Assembly (NCBI RefSeq): GCF_021502675.1
Contig: NZ_JAKFHA010000001.1
Coordinates: forward strand, 788,698 to 852,697
Length of the DNA: 64,000 nucleotides
Origin: Yinghuangia soli
Lineage (GTDB): Bacteria; Actinomycetota; Actinomycetes; Streptomycetales; Streptomycetaceae
Reading direction: 5' to 3'
Shown here: one piece after another, positions 55,260-64,000 of the stretch
Position numbering within the stretch: the stretch's first letter is position 1
Layout of the letters: the number at the start of each line of letters is the position of its first letter
Translations under genes and position numbers: made by a program
The notes under the pieces: generated by a model
Told to the model about the DNA's origin: nothing
The model's input: the letters and a program-made list of their open reading frames with translations, nothing else
The model's database searches: none

Positions 55260-56390
55260 CTATCCGGCCTGGTCCAGGGCCCCGACGAGCATGGGCAGTG
55301 CGTAGTGGATCTCGCGGTCCCAGTACGGCCAGCTGTGCGTTCCCGTCGCCGAGCAGACCTCGGCGGGGATGCCGAGTCCGGCCAGCCGCGCGCGGAAGAG
55401 GTTGTTCATCGCCCAGAACGCCTTCTCCACGCCGAGGTCGTCGGTCCCGGCCGCGGTCGGGTCGCTGCACCGCGAGGCGGGCACCGGCGGCGGGTTGCCG
55501 CCGTTCCAGTCCCAGCCGGGTCCGGCGGAGCCGTCGCCGTTGCCGTAGGTCAGGTAGAGGCGTGTGCCGCGCAGTCCTTCGGCGATGTCGTACGGATTGC
55601 TCGCCGCCCACACCGCTCGCTGCCGCACATCGGCCGGATCGAAGGTGTCGAACGGGTACCCGGGCTCGCCCCAGATCCGGCGCCAGTCGGTCTTCTCCCC
55701 GCCCTTGCTGCACGCGAGAGCGCCGAGCTTCACGAAGTCGGGCCCGCTGAAGCCGAGTCCGGGTGCCTTGTAGAGCGTGTGCGACTCCGGCGAAAGCGCC
55801 GCGACGGCCCGGAAGTGGCCGGGATTGCGGGCGGCCAGCGAAAGCGCCCCGCCGCCGCCCATCGACAGCCCGAGCACTGCGCGTTCGGTGCCTGCGCGGT
55901 AGCGGCTCTCCAGGAGCCGGGGCAGATCGCGCGTGAGGTACTCCTCCCAGCGCGGTGTGCCGCCGCGGCCGCCGTTGTACCAGTCGGTGTAGCTGCTGCA
56001 GGGGCTGGTCTCCGGCATCACGACGATGACGTCGCGCTCCGCGGCCATCTCGGCGATGTGCGACGACTCGGTGTACTGCTTGTGGTCGCCGCCTCCGCCG
56101 TGCAGCATCCACAGCGTGGGCCACGTGCGCCGCGCGTCCCTGGACCACCCGCGTGGCAGCAACAGGCGTACGGTGGTGAGGAGTTCGCCGGTCGAGGGGG
56201 CATCGACCGCGACGTCCATGACCCGCGGGTCGCCGGCGCCGTTCCCGGGGTGCACCGCGGACTCCGGGTACGCCTCCCACAGAACCGACGCCGCGGAACC
56301 GCCGTCGGCAGCCGCGGCTTCGGCGACCGCGGGCGATCCGGCGGTCAACGCCAGCGCCAGCACTACGCCGGCAAGTCTCTTCCTCAGCAC
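55260..56390 (-). CDS. Secreted antigen-85-like esterase 1
   Basis: A 376-aa alpha/beta-hydrolase with an N-terminal signal peptide (about 27 residues). It has TLWMLHGGGGDHKQY (oxyanion region), MPETSPCSSYTDWYN, the nucleophile elbow GLSMGGGGAL near residue 195, and THSWPYWDREIHYALP with the catalytic His near the end. This is the esterase D/mycolyltransferase (Ag85) fold found as surface acyl-esterases in Streptomyces. It is paralogous to the gene at 56539. Confidence 0.85.
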   Translation of the reverse strand: MLRKRLAGVVLALALTAGSPAVAEAAAADGGSAASVLWEAYPESAVHPGNGAGDPRVMDVAVDAPSTGELLTTVRLLLPRGWSRDARRTWPTLWMLHGGGGDHKQYTESSHIAEMAAERDVIVVMPETSPCSSYTDWYNGGRGGTPRWEEYLTRDLPRLLESRYRAGTERAVLGLSMGGGGALSLAARNPGHFRAVAALSPESHTLYKAPGLGFSGPDFVKLGALACSKGGEKTDWRRIWGEPGYPFDTFDPADVRQRAVWAASNPYDIAEGLRGTRLYLTYGNGDGSAGPGWDWNGGNPPPVPASRCSDPTAAGTDDLGVEKAFWAMNNLFRARLAGLGIPAEVCSATGTHSWPYWDREIHYALPMLVGALDQAG

Positions 56391-56538: not shown

Positions 56539-57804
56539 TCAGAGCCCGAGCGACCCCAGCAGCATGGGCAGCGCTGCGTAGATCTCGCGGTCCCAATAGG
56601 GCCACGAGTGCAGCCCGTACGCAGCGCACTCGGTGAACGGGATGCCCAACTCCCGCAGGCGGTCGGCGAAGCTCTGGTTCATCTTGCCGTCCACGCGCTC
56701 CAGCATCGCCGCGTCGATCACGGCAGGGCTGGGCTTGCCGGTGGGCGGGCTCGCGAGGCAGCGCTGGGGGTTCGGCTGCACCTGGTTCCCGGCGGCGTCG
56801 AGTTGGCCCCACGCCCAGCCGGCGCCGGTGATGTCGCCGTCCGGGACCGGCTTTCCGGTGACCGGGTCGAGGGCCGGCGGCTGGGTGGCCGAGGTGTCGG
56901 AGCCGTTGCCGTAGTACAGATACAGCGGAGTCCCGCGCAGGCCCTCGGCGTTGTGGATGGCACTATTCGCCAGCCAGTAGTTGCGCTGCCGCAGGTCGGT
57001 CGGGTCGTTGGTGAAGAACGGGTAGCCCGGCTCGCCCCAGATGCGCTTCCAGTCCACGCCGCCGGGCGCGCACAGCGGACCGCTGGCCCAGACGATGGAC
57101 GGGCCGAGGATCGGCTCCGACGTGTCGCCGGGGTGCCACAGCATGTTCACCGCGCCGCTCAGCGACGCCACCGACTTGAAGTGGCCCGGGTGCTTGCCGG
57201 CCAGCGTCATCGCACCGCCGCCGCCCATCGAGATGCCGAGTACGGCGCGGTCGCCGCTCGCCCGGTACTGGGACTCGAGGATCTGGCTGACCTCCTCGAT
57301 GATGTAGTCCTCCCAGTCGGGAGCCAGCGCCTCGTTGTTGCCGTTGTACCAGTTCGAGTAACTGCTGCAGGGGCTGGTCTCCGGCATGACGACCATGACG
57401 TCCTTGTCCAGGACCATCTGCTGGATGCTGGACTTGTCGGTGTAGCTCGTGTGGTTGTCGCCGCCGCCGTGCAGCATCCACAGCGTGGGCCAGGTGCGGG
57501 TCGCGGTCTTCGACCAGCCGACCGGCAGCAGCACGCGCACCCACTTGACCGGGGCGCCGGTGGACGGCGAGTTGATGCCGATGTCGATGATGCGCTTCTG
57601 CGTCGCGGTGCTGTTGTTCGGGTGGACGGGCGTATTGGGGAAGGCCTCCCACCACACCGTCGCGGGATTGGCGGTGGCGTTCGCCGCGGGACCGGCGGCC
57701 ACCCCCAACCCCAGCAGCGGGGCGAGCACCGCGAGGACCAGCGACCAGCCCGTGAGGCGGCGGCGCGGTATGCGGCGGGATCTTCTCCGGGGTACCTGAA
57801 GCAT
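56539..57804 (-). CDS. Secreted antigen-85-like esterase 2
   Basis: A 421-aa paralogue of esterase 1. An Arg-rich signal peptide (twin-arginine-like RRRSRRIPRRR) is followed by LTGWSLVLAVLAPLLGLGVA. The core has TLWMLHGGGDNHTSY, MPETSPCSSYSNWYNG, GISMGGGGAM and GLHSWPYWDREIYAALP. An insert near residue 300 (TGKPVPDGDITGAGWAWG) is absent from copy 1. AGGAG precedes the ATG at 57804. Two inverted repeats lie in its upstream gap. Confidence 0.85.
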   Translation of the reverse strand: MLQVPRRRSRRIPRRRLTGWSLVLAVLAPLLGLGVAAGPAANATANPATVWWEAFPNTPVHPNNSTATQKRIIDIGINSPSTGAPVKWVRVLLPVGWSKTATRTWPTLWMLHGGGDNHTSYTDKSSIQQMVLDKDVMVVMPETSPCSSYSNWYNGNNEALAPDWEDYIIEEVSQILESQYRASGDRAVLGISMGGGGAMTLAGKHPGHFKSVASLSGAVNMLWHPGDTSEPILGPSIVWASGPLCAPGGVDWKRIWGEPGYPFFTNDPTDLRQRNYWLANSAIHNAEGLRGTPLYLYYGNGSDTSATQPPALDPVTGKPVPDGDITGAGWAWGQLDAAGNQVQPNPQRCLASPPTGKPSPAVIDAAMLERVDGKMNQSFADRLRELGIPFTECAAYGLHSWPYWDREIYAALPMLLGSLGL

Positions 57805-57856
57805 GGACGGACTCCTGGGGACGGACCGGTCGGACGCGCGGCAGCCTGGCCGAGGC

Positions 57857-57866
57857 GACACGTGTC
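57857..57866. promoter_or_regulatory. GACACGTGTC palindrome upstream of esterase 2
   Basis: A perfect 10-bp palindrome with CACGTG at the core, 53 bases before the esterase 2 start on the minus strand. It is short enough to occur by chance but lies near a second inverted repeat. Confidence 0.35.
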
Positions 57867-57933: not shown

Positions 57934-60684
57934 TCACCGGCCCCGGAGCGCGGCCGCCAAGTAGCGCCGGTAGGTCAGGCTCCGATACCGCAGCGCCTCG
58001 GCGCGGGCCGCCTCGCCGCGGGCCACCGCGGCCGCGTGCTCCGCCCGGTGGTCGGCCGCCGCGGCTTCTGCGTCGCGGAGCGCGGCCTCGGCGCGGGCCC
58101 GGTCGGCGGCGGCCGCGTGCGCGGACCGCTGCTCCTCGGCGGCGCGTTCGTCCTCCATGGCCTCGAGTTCGGCCAGCGCGGAGGTGCGGGCGCGGGCGGC
58201 CTGGCGGTTCAGGTCGAGGCGCCGGTCCGCGCGCCTGCGGTGCAGCTCCTGCGCGGCGTCGTACGGCAGCGCGCCGGGCAGGCGCACCCGCAGGTCGTCC
58301 GCGAGGCCGTCGCGCCAGGACTGGAGCCGGCGGGCCACCGAGGGGGCGATCCCGTCCGCCTTGACCGACCGGCCGGGGCCCGACACAACGGCCTGGTCGC
58401 GGAGTTCGGGGGACGTGGGCACCGCGGAGGTGACCCGGGTGAAGTCCGCGGCGGTGCGGATGCCGCCGCGCTCCAGCTCGGCGACCAGCCGGGCGCCGAG
58501 CAGCGAGACGGGCAGGCCGTGCCGGGCCAGCCCGTCGTCGAGCATGCGCTCCTGGAGTCTGCGCAGGGCTTCGAGCTCTTCCCGCGCGCCGGATCCTTCG
58601 AGGGCGGTGCGGCGCTGCTCGACCGAGCGCAGGGCCTCGTCGAGGCGCTGCTGCACGCGCTCCTGCTCGAACCGGTGGCGCTCCGCCAGTGCGGTCGCGG
58701 CGGCCGCCTGCCGTACGCCGATCTCGCCGAGGGCGCCTTTGCGGACGAGGACTTCGGCGTCCGCCTCCTGCAACCGGGCGGACGCGTCGGCCGCCGCGAC
58801 CCGTGCGACCTCGGCCTCCCACTCAGCGGTGCGGGCCTTGAGCATCTCCGGCGTGGTCCGGTACCGGACCCGCAACCGGCGCGTCCCGCGCACGTAGGTG
58901 AGGGCCAGCGACGCCGCCGCCCCAAGTGCCACCGGCAGCCCCAGGATCCACCAGCCGACGAGCGCCACCGCAACTCCCCCGACTGCTGCGGCTATGCCTG
59001 TCGCCCAGACCGCAAGGGTCCACCGCACGGCTGCAACATCCGCACGCCCCAAGGGCGCGAATGCCGCCACCGGCGAGGGAGAAGGTGACGTACTCGAGTA
59101 CGAGTTCGCCCCCACACCCGACTGCGGGACGGAGGCACCCAGGCTGCTCCCCGGCCCGGTTCCTGGTGCCGCCGAACTCCCTGCCGCGGGGGGTGAGACC
59201 CTTGAGGCTCCCGCGGACGGGGCGGTTGCACGACCACCGCCGGGCCGAACGCCGGACCGGGCCGTACCAGGCGCGCGGCCCGATTGCGCAGCAGGCGAAC
59301 CTCGCCCGCCTCCTTGTGCGCGACCCGGCGTCCCCCCACCTGCCGTTCCACCTGCGCTCGCTCCGTGCCCGGCCGTGCCGGGTGCCGGAGGTGGGCCGGG
59401 CGCGTGGCCCGGCTGCGGAGCCGTGGTTCCTGGGCTGTTCCCCTGCCCTCGCCCGGCTCCCCGCGCTGCGGAGTTGCGCGCTGGACGGACCTGTTCGCCA
59501 GGGGCGGCTGGTGGCTGCGTACGGCCCTGCGTATCCCCGCCCGCTGTTCCGCCTGACCCCGGTCCCGGTCGGGCCGTGCCGGGTGCCGGAGGCGGGCCAG
59601 GCGTGTGGCCCGGTTGCGGTGGAGCCTCGTGCGCTGTGCGGGCGGCCTGCTGTGCGGCCAGTCCCTCGGCCAGCCAGCCCGGCAGCCGCAGATTCCCTTC
59701 CTCCGCGCGGCAGGGCACGGGCGGCAGCGTGGGGGGCACCAAGGGCGCCACGGCGGCGACCGGTTCACGGCACCAATGAGCCAGGCGCGCGAAGTCCGCG
59801 GTCAGTTCCGGGACGGCGCAGGCCACCGACGCGAAGCGGTCCGACGCGGTGGGGTCCGCGTAGTCGTCGCCTTTCAGCAGCAGGTGCTCGCCGCCCTCCT
59901 CGTGGTACGTGCGCCACAGTTCGGGGGCGCGAGCCAAGGCTCGCAGGCTCAGGTGGATCACGTGCGCCGAGAAGCGGTCCAGGCCGGGGCCGAAGTCCCG
60001 GGGGCCGCGCGCGGGGTGCTGGTAGTTGCGGTGGCCGTGTTCGGCGGCCGGCAGGCCCGCCAGCGCGGGGACGTACATGCCGTCGTAGTCGATGAGCCGC
60101 AGGCTGCCGTCGGGGCGCACGACGATGTTGCCGTGCTGCAGGTCGCCGTGCGCGAAGCCGGCCGCCTCCAGGTCGCGGACCAGGTCGGCGAACCGGTCGG
60201 CGAGGGCGCCGATCGCGGCGGGGTCGTCGAGGTGCTCTTCCAACCACGGTATGAGCCCGGTGCCTTCGACCCACTCCATCAGGATCACCGGGTACCAGGT
60301 CCCGTGCACCAGCACGCCCCTCGGCACGTACTCGACCGGCACCCGCCAGTCCCCCGCCGCAGCCCGCAGCGCCTCGCCTATCGCGCGGTAGCGCCGCAGG
60401 CGGCCCGGGACCGCGCGGGTGAAGCATTTGACCGCGATCTCGCGTCCCGCGCCGGGTTCGGCCGAGGTGACCCGGAAGACGCTGCCGAAGTTCCCGGACA
60501 CCACGCGCGGCATGCGCAGCGCACCGCCCATGGCGACCTGCCCGCGGGCCACCGCGGGATGCGCGAAGCACAGCGTGGTGTCGCGGAGCGCCTCGCTGTA
60601 GTCCGCGCCCGTCGGGTACGTCTCGCGTACCTGCGGGCCGCCGCCCGCCGGACGCCGCCCCTCCCGCGTGCCCTCCCCGCTCAT
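57934..60684 (-). CDS. Membrane-anchored protein kinase with coiled coils and helix-hairpin-helix region (TerY-P kinase)
   Basis: A 916-aa protein. The kinase domain (about residues 40-310) has the G-loop SGNFGSVFRV, REIAVKCF (Lys), the catalytic loop HGDLQHGNIVV and LIDYDGMYV in place of DFG. A Pro/Gly-rich linker (about 350-540) contains two repeats beginning PQPGHTPGPPPAPGT and PQPGHAPGPPPAPGT. Two membrane helices follow (about 550-595), then coiled coil, a helix-hairpin-helix segment (LLGARLVAELERGGIRTAADF, DGIAPSVARRLQSW) and more coiled coil. This is the COG4248 kinase plan of TerY-P triads. ATG 60684 has GGGGGG upstream; it follows the PP2C stop by 23 bases. Confidence 0.85.
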   Translation of the reverse strand: MSGEGTREGRRPAGGGPQVRETYPTGADYSEALRDTTLCFAHPAVARGQVAMGGALRMPRVVSGNFGSVFRVTSAEPGAGREIAVKCFTRAVPGRLRRYRAIGEALRAAAGDWRVPVEYVPRGVLVHGTWYPVILMEWVEGTGLIPWLEEHLDDPAAIGALADRFADLVRDLEAAGFAHGDLQHGNIVVRPDGSLRLIDYDGMYVPALAGLPAAEHGHRNYQHPARGPRDFGPGLDRFSAHVIHLSLRALARAPELWRTYHEEGGEHLLLKGDDYADPTASDRFASVACAVPELTADFARLAHWCREPVAAVAPLVPPTLPPVPCRAEEGNLRLPGWLAEGLAAQQAARTAHEAPPQPGHTPGPPPAPGTARPGPGSGGTAGGDTQGRTQPPAAPGEQVRPARNSAARGAGRGQGNSPGTTAPQPGHAPGPPPAPGTAGHGASAGGTAGGGTPGRAQGGGRGSPAAQSGRAPGTARSGVRPGGGRATAPSAGASRVSPPAAGSSAAPGTGPGSSLGASVPQSGVGANSYSSTSPSPSPVAAFAPLGRADVAAVRWTLAVWATGIAAAVGGVAVALVGWWILGLPVALGAAASLALTYVRGTRRLRVRYRTTPEMLKARTAEWEAEVARVAAADASARLQEADAEVLVRKGALGEIGVRQAAAATALAERHRFEQERVQQRLDEALRSVEQRRTALEGSGAREELEALRRLQERMLDDGLARHGLPVSLLGARLVAELERGGIRTAADFTRVTSAVPTSPELRDQAVVSGPGRSVKADGIAPSVARRLQSWRDGLADDLRVRLPGALPYDAAQELHRRRADRRLDLNRQAARARTSALAELEAMEDERAAEEQRSAHAAAADRARAEAALRDAEAAAADHRAEHAAAVARGEAARAEALRYRSLTYRRYLAAALRGR

Positions 60685-60707
60685 GTCCGTCCCCCCGCCG
60701 GCCCTGC

Positions 60708-61562
60708 TCAGCGCGGCTCTATGCGTACGAGTGTCACGTCGTCGTTGCGCATTTCCCCGGCGCCGCGCTGGCGGCCCACCCAGGACGCCAGGTCCCGCGG
60801 TGCCGCGGAGTCCAGCGCGCGCAGCATCTCCCAGGGTCTGCGGCCGTGTTCGGCCTGCCGCAGGAACCACGCGGCCATCGCGTCGGTGGCCAGGTAGAAG
60901 CGGTCGCCGGCCAGCCAGCCGCCGGTCGCGTGGCGGGCCCGCTCGGCGACCAGCGCGCGGTCCTGCCCGCGGCTCGCGGCCAGCGCGGGGCGGGTGTCGA
61001 AGCCGTCCGACGCGTCGACCGGGAAGGCCAACCGGAGCCGGTCCCCGCGCACGTGGAAGAGGCACGAGTCGCCGAGGGCGACCGCCGACCAGTGGCCGCA
61101 CGCGGGCGCCCAGCGATGCGCCGCGAAGTGGGCGACCAGCACGGTGGCATGCGCGCCGCGGTCCAGGCCGGGGCGTTCGTACCAGGCCAGCGGGCGGCCG
61201 CGCAGTTCGCGCCGGTGCTCGTAGCGCTTGGTGAGGTCGGGCCAGCGGTCCGCGGCGCGGGCCAGAACGTCGGCGAAGCCGAGCCCGGTGCGCAGCAGTC
61301 CGGTCGGTGCCGAACCCGCGCCGCGGACCAGGAGTTCGGCCCAGCGCCGGGCGAGCAGGCTCTCGGAGGCGCCGTCCGCGACCGCGGCGCGCAGGGTGGC
61401 GACGCGGCCGACCTCGCCGCGCCGGCAGGCCGGTCCGGGCGGCGGCAGGATGCTGCGGGCGGAGCCGGGGGCAGCGCTGCTGCCGACCCAGGCGGCGTCC
61501 TCGTATTCGTGCGGCTCGGCACCGCTCTTGTGCAGCGCGAGCACGGTCACGTGGGCGCGCAT
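60708..61562 (-). CDS. PP2C-type phosphatase of the TerY-P triad
   Basis: A 284-aa stand-alone PP2C-like serine/threonine phosphatase. Metal-binding aspartates are in RAAVADGASESLLARRWAELL near residue 60 and RNDDVTLVRI at the end, with AVALGDSCLFHVRGDRL and LATDAMAAWFL between. It should reverse phosphorylation by the adjacent kinase. The ATG at 61562 follows the vWA stop by 5 bases and the kinase starts 23 bases downstream, so the three are one operon. Confidence 0.85.
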   Translation of the reverse strand: MRAHVTVLALHKSGAEPHEYEDAAWVGSSAAPGSARSILPPPGPACRRGEVGRVATLRAAVADGASESLLARRWAELLVRGAGSAPTGLLRTGLGFADVLARAADRWPDLTKRYEHRRELRGRPLAWYERPGLDRGAHATVLVAHFAAHRWAPACGHWSAVALGDSCLFHVRGDRLRLAFPVDASDGFDTRPALAASRGQDRALVAERARHATGGWLAGDRFYLATDAMAAWFLRQAEHGRRPWEMLRALDSAAPRDLASWVGRQRGAGEMRNDDVTLVRIEPR

Positions 61563-61567
61563 CGCCG

Positions 61568-62452
61568 CTACCTGAGGTCCGCGGCGCGCGTGCCTATGTC
61601 GAGGAACTGCACGACCGCGGACAGGTCCGCATTGAAGACGAACCCCTTGGCGCCGTCCGCGACGTCCTGGCCCTGCTCGGTGGCGTAGGCCCGCATGCCG
61701 GGCGGCAGTTCGCTCGACATGTGGGAGAGCAGGCGCGCGTACTGGTCGGGGAGTTCGTCGTCGGGTGCAGGGAACTGCACAGGTGCGGTGCGGTTCGCCG
61801 AGATGTGCAGGTTGAACAGCAGCGCCTCGCCGTCCCCGGTGACGTGGTAGCGCAGCCGGGTCGCGGCCTCGTCGGGGTTGCCGTCCGTGGACTCGCCGTC
61901 GGTGAGGTTGAGGACGATGGGCGGGAAGCCGTCCGGGTACGCGTCGACCCAGCGCGAGACGACCTTCCCGGCGGCGGCGAGGGCCTCGCACATGGGGGTG
62001 CCGCCGGAGGCCACCGGTTCGACCCATACCGGGGATTCGATGGTGCGCTCGACCAGTCCGCCGGCCCCGTCCGGGACCTTCTTGGTGCGCGCCTCGAAGC
62101 GCGCGGGGAAGGCCGCGATCTCGCTGAGCGGCACCAGTTCGCGTCCGGCCAGCGGGCCCGCGAGTGCGGGCTGCACGATGCCGCCGTAGCCGATCACGGT
62201 GATGGTGAAGTAGTCGCGGACGCCTTCCTCCTTGGCGCAGCGCACCGACAGTTCGAACAGCAGCCGGTTGAGCGAGTCGGCCACCACGTCGGCCTTGCGG
62301 ACCGGGGCCGTTTCGGCTTCGGCCTCGGTGCGGGCCTTGCCGTCCGGTGCGCCGGGCGCCGTGCCGATCGGGTCGTGCATCGAACTCGACTGGTCGATCA
62401 GGAAGATCAGGCAGGCCGGGTGGGCCCGGCTGATCTCTGCGGTGTACGGCAT
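61568..62452 (-). CDS. TerY-like von Willebrand factor A protein
   Basis: A 294-aa vWA protein. The MIDAS metal site is complete: IFLIDQSSSM near residue 18, SGGTPMCEAL near 158, and LTDGESTDG near 184. It is of the TerY type, where vWA domains serve as a metal-dependent scaffold for a PP2C/kinase pair. ATG 62452 has AAGGG 7 bases upstream; an ATG at 62560 would add a non-conserved Pro/Ser/Cys stretch. It is first gene of the triad. Confidence 0.85.
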   Translation of the reverse strand: MPYTAEISRAHPACLIFLIDQSSSMHDPIGTAPGAPDGKARTEAEAETAPVRKADVVADSLNRLLFELSVRCAKEEGVRDYFTITVIGYGGIVQPALAGPLAGRELVPLSEIAAFPARFEARTKKVPDGAGGLVERTIESPVWVEPVASGGTPMCEALAAAGKVVSRWVDAYPDGFPPIVLNLTDGESTDGNPDEAATRLRYHVTGDGEALLFNLHISANRTAPVQFPAPDDELPDQYARLLSHMSSELPPGMRAYATEQGQDVADGAKGFVFNADLSAVVQFLDIGTRAADLR

Positions 62453-62584: not shown

Positions 62585-64000
62585 TCAGGCTTCGGGGCCG
62601 TGCAGCGGGCTGGGCAGGAGCTCGGGCGGGCCGCTGCGCTGGCGCGGCAGCCGGTCGCGGTTGGGGGTGTGCCGGGCCAGGCGCGGGCCGAGCAGGTCGA
62701 ACCGCGGGTAGCGCTCCTTGAGTTCGGGGAAGCGCTGCTGGTAGCGGGTCACCTCGGCGCGGACCAGGGACCAGAAGACGGCCTCGGGGACGCCGAGGTC
62801 GTCGTCGGCGATGGCCGAGAGGTGCCGCAGGGGTCCGCCGAAGAGTCCGCCGCCGACCAGCGCACCCAGGTCCGCTGCGGTGTAGCGGGCGGCCGCGCGG
62901 CGCGGCGCGAACTCGGGCCCGGGTCCGGGATCTTCCGCCATCTCCGGGGCCAGTCCCTCGGCTTCCGGGAAGGGTGTCCCGTCCGGGTCTCCGCACACGA
63001 GCAGCCCGCGGGCGACGTCGCGGACCGCGAGCCGCACCGGGACTTCCCCGGCGTCCGAGACGACCACCAGGGCTTCGCCGTAGCTGGGGAACGCCAGACC
63101 GTACCGGTAGAGCAGGTGCAGCAGCGGCGGCAGGACGGCGCTGCACAGCCAGCGGAGCCACTCGCGCGGAGCGAGTCCGGACCGCGCGACCAGTTCGGCG
63201 ACCAGCGGCCGGCCGGTGTGGTCGCGGTGCAGCAAGGCCGGGAGGGGGCGGGCGCGTTCGCCGGTGTCCAGGCGGGCCGCGAGGGGCTCGCTCCACAGGG
63301 CGCCGAGCAGCCCGCGGTACGGATGCCCGCCGGACTCGCCGCGGACCGGGTCGAGGTGCGGGTGCCGGACGGCGACCGATGCCAGGTCGGCGAGCAGCAG
63401 CACCCGGGTCTCGCCGTGCAGGAACGGGTCGGCGTGGTAGCGGTCCACGAGGCGGCGGGTGATGTCCGGCGAGACCGCGGCGGGTGCGGGGACCGGGCAG
63501 CCGAGCGGCGCGTCGGGGCCGGCCAGCGGGAGTGCGACGTCGCGGCGGCCGGGCCGGTCCAGGTTGGTGAAGCCGCCGCCGGCCTGGCGCGGCAGGTAGC
63601 GGTCCGGGCCGCCGTCGCCCAGCGGTACGAGCAGGCCGTGCGCCAAGTCGGCGGCGAAAAGCGGGAGTACGGTCTCGTCCCACTGCCACGGATGCACCGG
63701 CAGCCATAAGTAGTCGGCCGGGTCGGCGCCGCGGTCCCGCAGCCGGGCGGTGAAGCGGCGGCGGGTGGACGGGTCGAGTTCCTCGGTGCGCAGCCGCTGC
63801 TCGGTCAGGTCGGGTGTGCTGGTGTGCCAGGTGGCGATGTCGCGGTGCACGGCCGCCCACGGGAGGCGGATCGGGTTGCGGGCCTCGGGCGCCCAGCGGC
63901 TGGCATCGGTGGCCGAGAAGCCGGGCCGCACGCGGTCCGGCACCAGGCCGGGGCGGCCGCCGACGCGGCCTTCCAGGTCGAGGTAGGCCAGGTCGGCGAG
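62585..64000 (-). CDS. IucA/IucC-like siderophore synthetase homologue, partial, eroded active-site motifs
   Basis: The ORF stays open to the window edge, so its N-terminus is missing; 471 residues are seen. Family landmarks are APEARNPIRLPWAAVHRD, YLWLPVHPWQWDETVLP and a C-terminal helical region. The usual S-x-R-T nucleotide motif is replaced (RQAGGGFTNLDRPGRRD) with VALPL for VKLPL, and the usual HGQN is YGEA (FPSYGEALVVV). The protein may therefore have lost NIS synthetase activity. One leucine codon is TTA (63707-63709), rare in Streptomyces. It ends 132 bases before the TerY-P triad. Confidence 0.75.
   Translation of the reverse strand, partial: LADLAYLDLEGRVGGRPGLVPDRVRPGFSATDASRWAPEARNPIRLPWAAVHRDIATWHTSTPDLTEQRLRTEELDPSTRRRFTARLRDRGADPADYLWLPVHPWQWDETVLPLFAADLAHGLLVPLGDGGPDRYLPRQAGGGFTNLDRPGRRDVALPLAGPDAPLGCPVPAPAAVSPDITRRLVDRYHADPFLHGETRVLLLADLASVAVRHPHLDPVRGESGGHPYRGLLGALWSEPLAARLDTGERARPLPALLHRDHTGRPLVAELVARSGLAPREWLRWLCSAVLPPLLHLLYRYGLAFPSYGEALVVVSDAGEVPVRLAVRDVARGLLVCGDPDGTPFPEAEGLAPEMAEDPGPGPEFAPRRAAARYTAADLGALVGGGLFGGPLRHLSAIADDDLGVPEAVFWSLVRAEVTRYQQRFPELKERYPRFDLLGPRLARHTPNRDRLPRQRSGPPELLPSPLHGPEA

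What the first reader, a model, noticed from the sequence alone, without database searches (positions are those of the whole stretch)
57934..62452. TerY-P triad: vWA, PP2C phosphatase and membrane-tethered kinase with HhH region
Three tightly spaced genes (gaps of 5 and 23 bases) encode an intact-MIDAS vWA protein, a PP2C and a kinase with coiled coils and helix-hairpin-helix. Comparative genomics named this set the TerY-P triad and linked it to stress and DNA processing, and a Gao et al. defence screen lists a TerY system. The membrane helices between kinase and HhH, and the repeated Pro/Gly linker, point to a membrane-anchored variant that I have not seen described.
Basis: partly seen in the sequence, partly recalled or inferred. 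Interest (0 to 1): 0.85.

Follow-up and report, generated by a model that had tools for sequence, protein, structure and literature searches.

The report
Membrane-anchored TerY-P kinase–phosphatase triad
Three neighbouring genes of a Yinghuangia soil bacterium encode a known type of on/off phosphorylation switch (metal-binding adaptor, phosphatase and membrane-anchored kinase) that protects other bacteria from viruses; its membrane anchor and DNA-binding-like tip are unusual for the studied versions but follow a plan already known from an E. coli kinase.

Summary
Window 57934-62452 (- strand) encodes, with gaps of 5 and 23 bases, a vWA protein with an intact MIDAS, a PP2C phosphatase and a kinase carrying two membrane helices, coiled coil and a helix-hairpin-helix (HhH) region. 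All three match PADLOC's TerY-P models (4e-100, 2e-25, 1e-65). The kinase match covers only the catalytic half: the model's OB fold is absent. In its place AlphaFold (pLDDT 92) shows a transmembrane hairpin and a ~16 nm antiparallel coiled-coil stalk with the HhH domain at its tip. This tail is not unique: nearly all ~75 actinobacterial homologues examined have it, and it is homologous to that of E. coli YegI, a reported inner-membrane kinase encoded in the same vWA-PP2C-kinase order. The triad is patchy (18/200 genomes in the family, 4/296 in the phylum) and homologues often sit beside caspase-helicase, Mrr, PglW, DruE and type I RM genes, so defence is the best reading for the family. The window's own copy lies in a non-defence setting, stays at one locus within Yinghuangia, and has lost the glycine hairpins of the HhH. 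A new variant of a known kind; function untested.

The parts
61568..62452 (-). TerY-type vWA protein, 294 aa, first gene of the triad
   Evidence: PADLOC TerY E=4e-100 over 1-277/277; MIDAS residues invariant
62381..62395 (-). MIDAS DxSxS motif (D20-S24, DQSSS); T152 at 61997-61999 and D185 at 61898-61900 complete it
   Evidence: sequence; invariant in alignment A4
60708..61562 (-). PP2C-type Ser/Thr phosphatase, 284 aa
   Evidence: PADLOC PP2C 2.3e-25; AlphaFold pLDDT 91.8; Foldseek top hits are PP2C phosphatases
57934..60684 (-). Membrane-anchored protein kinase, 916 aa
   Evidence: PADLOC STK_OB 1.3e-65, kinase half only
59695..60621 (-). Kinase catalytic domain (residues about 22-330), catalytic residues intact
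59062..59694 (-). Pro/Gly/Ala-rich linker (residues 331-541), longest in the family
   Evidence: 211 aa, median 52.5
59321..59418 (.). 98-nt direct repeat inside the linker, copy 1
59522..59619 (.). 98-nt direct repeat inside the linker, copy 2 (80% identical)
58954..59046 (-). Transmembrane helix 1 (residues 547-577)
58858..58938 (-). Transmembrane helix 2 (residues 583-609), followed by a strongly basic segment (cytoplasmic side by the positive-inside rule)
58525..58851 (-). Outgoing coiled-coil stalk helix (residues 612-720, about 16 nm)
58282..58518 (-). HhH domain with a beta insert at the stalk tip (residues 723-801); glycine hairpins degenerate in this copy
57991..58263 (-). Returning coiled-coil stalk helix (residues 808-898)
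57943..57972 (-). C-terminal helix back at the membrane end of the stalk (residues 905-914; family motif RYLRF..GR)
62585..64000 (-). Neighbour, not part of the system: NIS siderophore synthetase (IucA/IucC + FhuF), 132 bases upstream, syntenic in Yinghuangia

Best explanation
A TerY-P triad in which the kinase is tethered to the membrane. Supported by sequence and models: the kinase is fused through a flexible linker to a transmembrane hairpin, which continues into a ~16 nm coiled-coil stalk carrying an HhH domain at its tip; the charge pattern puts kinase and stalk both in the cytoplasm. Inferred: the phosphatase keeps the kinase and its substrate unphosphorylated in healthy cells; the vWA protein uses its MIDAS metal to hold kinase, phosphatase and substrate together; a signal of phage infection or envelope/DNA stress, sensed by the stalk-HhH tip or by the vWA, tips the balance so that the kinase phosphorylates host or phage targets and stops virus growth. 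In the family the HhH tip probably binds nucleic acid near the membrane, or a partner protein; in the Yinghuangia copy the lost glycine hairpins make a protein contact more likely than canonical DNA binding.
For: TerY-P model matches for all three genes; catalytic and MIDAS residues conserved; PP2C fold; kinase profile matches. Cassette vWA>PP2C>kinase conserved in nearly all ~80 loci with varying neighbours. Tail structure, positive-inside pattern in 55/55 homologues, canonical HhH in most relatives, homology to the YegI tail at hhalign probability 98.1. Patchy spread: 18/200 in family, 4/296 in phylum. Defence genes recur beside it: UPF1-like helicase 14 loci (10 fused to a caspase), Mrr 12, EACC1 9, PglW 4, DruE 4; 98 PADLOC families matched in 131 neighbours against 14 in 131 control proteins. 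TerY-P blocks phages in E. coli (reported in PMC7699616) and P. aeruginosa (PMC10889362). Within Yinghuangia the kinase and HhH domains are 68-75% identical while TM, coiled coil and linker are 24-42%, so the tip is under selection.
Against: No function is tested for this tailed form. The window's own neighbours are siderophore and esterase genes, not defence genes. It is present in 3/3 Yinghuangia at one place next to the siderophore genes, like a resident gene. No defence role of E. coli YegI/PphC was found in the papers read, and its proteins do not match the TerY-P models. The neighbour enrichment counts overlapping model families, not independent genes.
Confidence: 0.55

Rival explanations
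1. A YegI/PphC/YegL-like housekeeping or stress phospho-switch: the triad regulates a host process (envelope, iron, cell cycle) and is not a defence system in this genus.
For: Tail homologous to YegI and same gene order; fixed in 3/3 Yinghuangia at a syntenic place beside NIS siderophore synthetases; no defence genes next to it here; own divergent vWA clade, 100/100 support, on a long stem.
Against: Its catalytic proteins match the TerY-P models and YegI/PphC/YegL do not; absent from over 90% of the family; only three species in the genus, so fixation means little; homologues are often surrounded by defence genes.
Confidence: 0.3
2. A regulatory module that serves a separate effector (such as the adjacent caspase-helicase in relatives, or genes elsewhere in the genome), with no antiviral effect on its own.
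For: Caspase-UPF1-like helicase fusions with an intact His-Cys dyad beside the triad in 10 loci, helicase alone in others; TerY-P accompanies CoCoNuT nucleases (PMC11090510).
Against: Most loci, the window included, have no such neighbour; an OB-type TerY-P acts as a stand-alone system (PMC11090510).
Confidence: 0.15

Closest known systems
TerY-P defence system (Gao et al. 2020; PADLOC TerY/PP2C/STK_OB)
   Same: Same three proteins; strong model matches of vWA, PP2C and kinase catalytic domain
   Different: No OB fold; tail replaced by TM hairpin, coiled-coil stalk and HhH
E. coli K-12 yegL-pphC(yegK)-yegI
   Same: Same gene order (yegJ inserted on the opposite strand in K-12) and the same kinase-2TM-coiled coil-HhH architecture; tail homologous; YegI reported membrane-bound and dephosphorylated by PphC
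   Different: Catalytic proteins too far apart for pairwise BLAST and not matched by the TerY-P models; stalk shorter
TerY-P of CoCoNuT systems (kinase with zinc ribbon)
   Same: vWA + PP2C + kinase set associated with defence loci (PMC11090510)
   Different: Zinc-ribbon tail instead of TM-stalk-HhH; no CoCoNuT genes seen next to the window triad

Membership tests
TerY-P triad | TerY-like vWA with MIDAS | tested here: met
   PADLOC TerY 4e-100 full length; D20/S22/S24/T152/D185 invariant
TerY-P triad | PP2C phosphatase adjacent | tested here: met
   PADLOC PP2C 2.3e-25; PP2C fold; 5-base gap
TerY-P triad | Ser/Thr kinase adjacent with catalytic residues | tested here: met
   PADLOC STK_OB 1.3e-65; H179/D181/N186/D199 invariant, K86 nearly
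TerY-P triad, OB or zinc-ribbon subtype | C-terminal OB fold or zinc ribbon on the kinase | tested here: not met
   Match stops at 288/562 of STK_OB; model shows TM hairpin, stalk and HhH, no OB fold. So it is filed as a TerY-P triad but not as the OB or zinc-ribbon subtype
TerY-P triad | Antiphage activity | not testable with these tools
   Needs plaque assays; reported for other TerY-P systems
YegI/PphC/YegL triad | Kinase followed by 2 TM helices, coiled coil and HhH | tested here: met
YegI/PphC/YegL triad | Catalytic proteins orthologous to E. coli YegI, PphC, YegL | tested here: not met
   Pairwise BLAST insignificant or marginal; E. coli proteins do not match the TerY-P models that the window proteins match
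HhH nucleic-acid-binding domain | GhG hairpin motifs | tested here: not met
   Degenerate in the window and both congeners, canonical in most other homologues; Pfam HHH_5 in 17/55 homologues, not in the window

The most novel reading that the evidence does not exclude
A membrane-tethered TerY-P subtype, the usual form in Actinobacteria, in which a kinase on the inner membrane carries a 16 nm cytoplasmic stalk with an HhH tip that probes incoming phage DNA near its entry site and switches on phosphorylation, in some lineages driving a caspase-helicase effector; in Yinghuangia the tip has been re-purposed for a protein contact.
Probability: 0.2. Interest if true: 0.75.

Novelty: new variant of a known kind. 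Interest (0 to 1): 0.4.

Why it matters
How TerY-P senses infection and what it phosphorylates was not explained in the papers read here. A conserved membrane anchor plus a stalk with a nucleic-acid-binding-type tip gives a concrete, testable sensor model, and links the little-understood E. coli YegI/PphC pair to a defence family.

Tried and rejected
Unique membrane variant: rejected, the plan is general in the family and in YegI. SLATT pore domain in the TM region (NCBIfam E=0.0025, 17.8 bits against a cut-off of 41): rejected as a weak membrane-composition match; the model shows a two-helix hairpin leading into a stalk. Universal housekeeping locus: rejected by patchiness. Recent plasmid or phage cargo: no phage match and only two cyanobacterial plasmids at about 40% identity. 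PDB fold search with the whole tail gave only generic coiled coils (SMC arms, dynein stalk), uninformative for function. No consensus iron box near the siderophore-triad junction and no sigma-70-type promoter or intrinsic terminator (such scans are weak for this host). Anantharaman 2012, Gao 2020 and the two YegI/PphC papers are not held in the library, so whether TM/HhH-tailed TerY-P kinases were listed there could not be checked. The self-search of the kinase in the own genome failed technically and was not repeated.

Full report
OBSERVATION. The window lies at C1:788698-852697 of a 9.7 Mb genome.

DOMAINS. PADLOC gives TerY 4e-100 over the whole vWA protein, PP2C 2.3e-25 for the second and STK_OB 1.3e-65 for the third; Pfam alone sees only sub-threshold VWA and kinase-like matches. 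The MIDAS (D20, S22, S24, T152, D185), the PP2C metal-ligand aspartates (D63, D165, D227, D274/D275) and the kinase catalytic residues (H179-G-D181, N186, D199; K86 nearly) are conserved throughout the family. The PP2C model (pLDDT 91.8) is closest to solved PP2C phosphatases (PppA 1.1e-8), and the kinase profile to solved Ser/Thr kinases (6.6e-9).

THE TAIL. The STK_OB match stops at position 288 of 562, so the OB half is not there. AlphaFold with 55 homologues models residues 542-916 at pLDDT 92.3: two helices in the membrane region, a 109-residue helix (about 16 nm), a compact HhH region with a beta insert, a 91-residue returning helix, and a last short helix. The relative packing is less certain (pTM 0.68). 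Basic residues flank the hairpin on both outer sides and are almost absent from its loop in 55/55 homologues, which puts kinase and stalk in the cytoplasm. Profile comparison with the tail of E. coli YegI gives probability 98.1 and E=9.6e-14 over 137 columns spanning stalk end, HhH and stalk start.

THE HhH IN THIS COPY. Most homologues have GIG-type hairpins; the window and both congeners have VSLLGA/DGIAPS-like forms. Pfam HHH_5 matches 17 of 55 homologues and not the window. The region is nevertheless 68-71% identical between the Yinghuangia species, as well kept as the catalytic domain (70-75%), while TM helices, coiled coil and linker are at 24-42%. So it is constrained but probably no longer a canonical DNA binder. 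The linker is 211 aa against a median of 52 and carries a 98-nt repeat.

DISTRIBUTION AND CONTEXT. The vWA protein is found in 3/3 genomes of the genus, 18/200 of the family, two of these by weak partial matches, and its PADLOC family in 4/296 of the phylum. Some 80 loci from other genomes show the same cassette. Neighbours change from locus to locus and often belong to defence: a UPF1-like helicase (14 loci, ten of them fused to a caspase-like protease with its His-Cys dyad), Mrr nuclease (12), EACC1 (9), PglW (4), DruE-like helicase (4), HsdM (3). Gene calls at these loci are my own (codon-position GC scoring), so gene ends are approximate. Among 131 sampled neighbours 98 PADLOC families were matched at E<=1e-10, against 14 among 131 proteins from random places in related genomes; these are overlapping models, so the ratio is only a guide. 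In the window the neighbours are NIS siderophore synthetases upstream and esterase-like genes downstream. The upstream side is syntenic in all three Yinghuangia species and the downstream side differs. In the vWA tree the three form one clade on a long stem, while the second triad of Y. seranimata groups with the Streptomycetaceae.

MECHANISM. Reported for the wider families: TerY-P triads protect against T7-like phages in E. coli (PMC7699616) and Autographiviridae in P. aeruginosa (PMC10889362); YegI is membrane-bound and is dephosphorylated by PphC (PMC13232886). Inferred here: a kinase/phosphatase balance on the membrane, organised by the vWA adaptor and triggered through the stalk tip or the vWA. 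Neither trigger nor substrate is known. For the Yinghuangia copy a host-regulatory role remains a serious rival.

VERDICT. The triad and its identity are confirmed. The membrane anchor is a prediction, well supported, but general in the family and preceded by YegI. New variant of a known kind, moderate interest.

Noticed in passing
L035, L036, L053, L073, L076, L082, L085, L087, L093, L095 (next to the triad): A 1200-1254 aa fusion of a caspase-like protease (SGHG ... DCCFSG) with a UPF1-like SF1 helicase sits beside or near the TerY-P triad, often with EACC1 and an Mrr nuclease; Nocardia L099, L108 and L109 have the helicase without the caspase.
   Followed up: partly
L031:8730-17177 (G001, Yinghuangia seranimata): Two TerY-P triads face each other tail to tail, one of the Yinghuangia lineage and one of the Streptomycetaceae lineage.
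   Followed up: partly
L042, L044 and the first triad of L099: TerY-P-like kinases with the hydrophobic hairpin at the extreme C-terminus and no stalk-HhH tail after it: a further tail type.
   Followed up: no
window 55260-56390 and 56539-57861: Two tandem, apparently paralogous secreted esterase-like proteins just downstream of the triad; the nearer one has no counterpart at this place in the two congeners.
   Followed up: no
window 62585-64000 and L009:6282-9881: Two adjacent NIS siderophore synthetase genes (IucA/IucC + FhuF) upstream of the triad; in G002 only one of them is present.
   Followed up: partly
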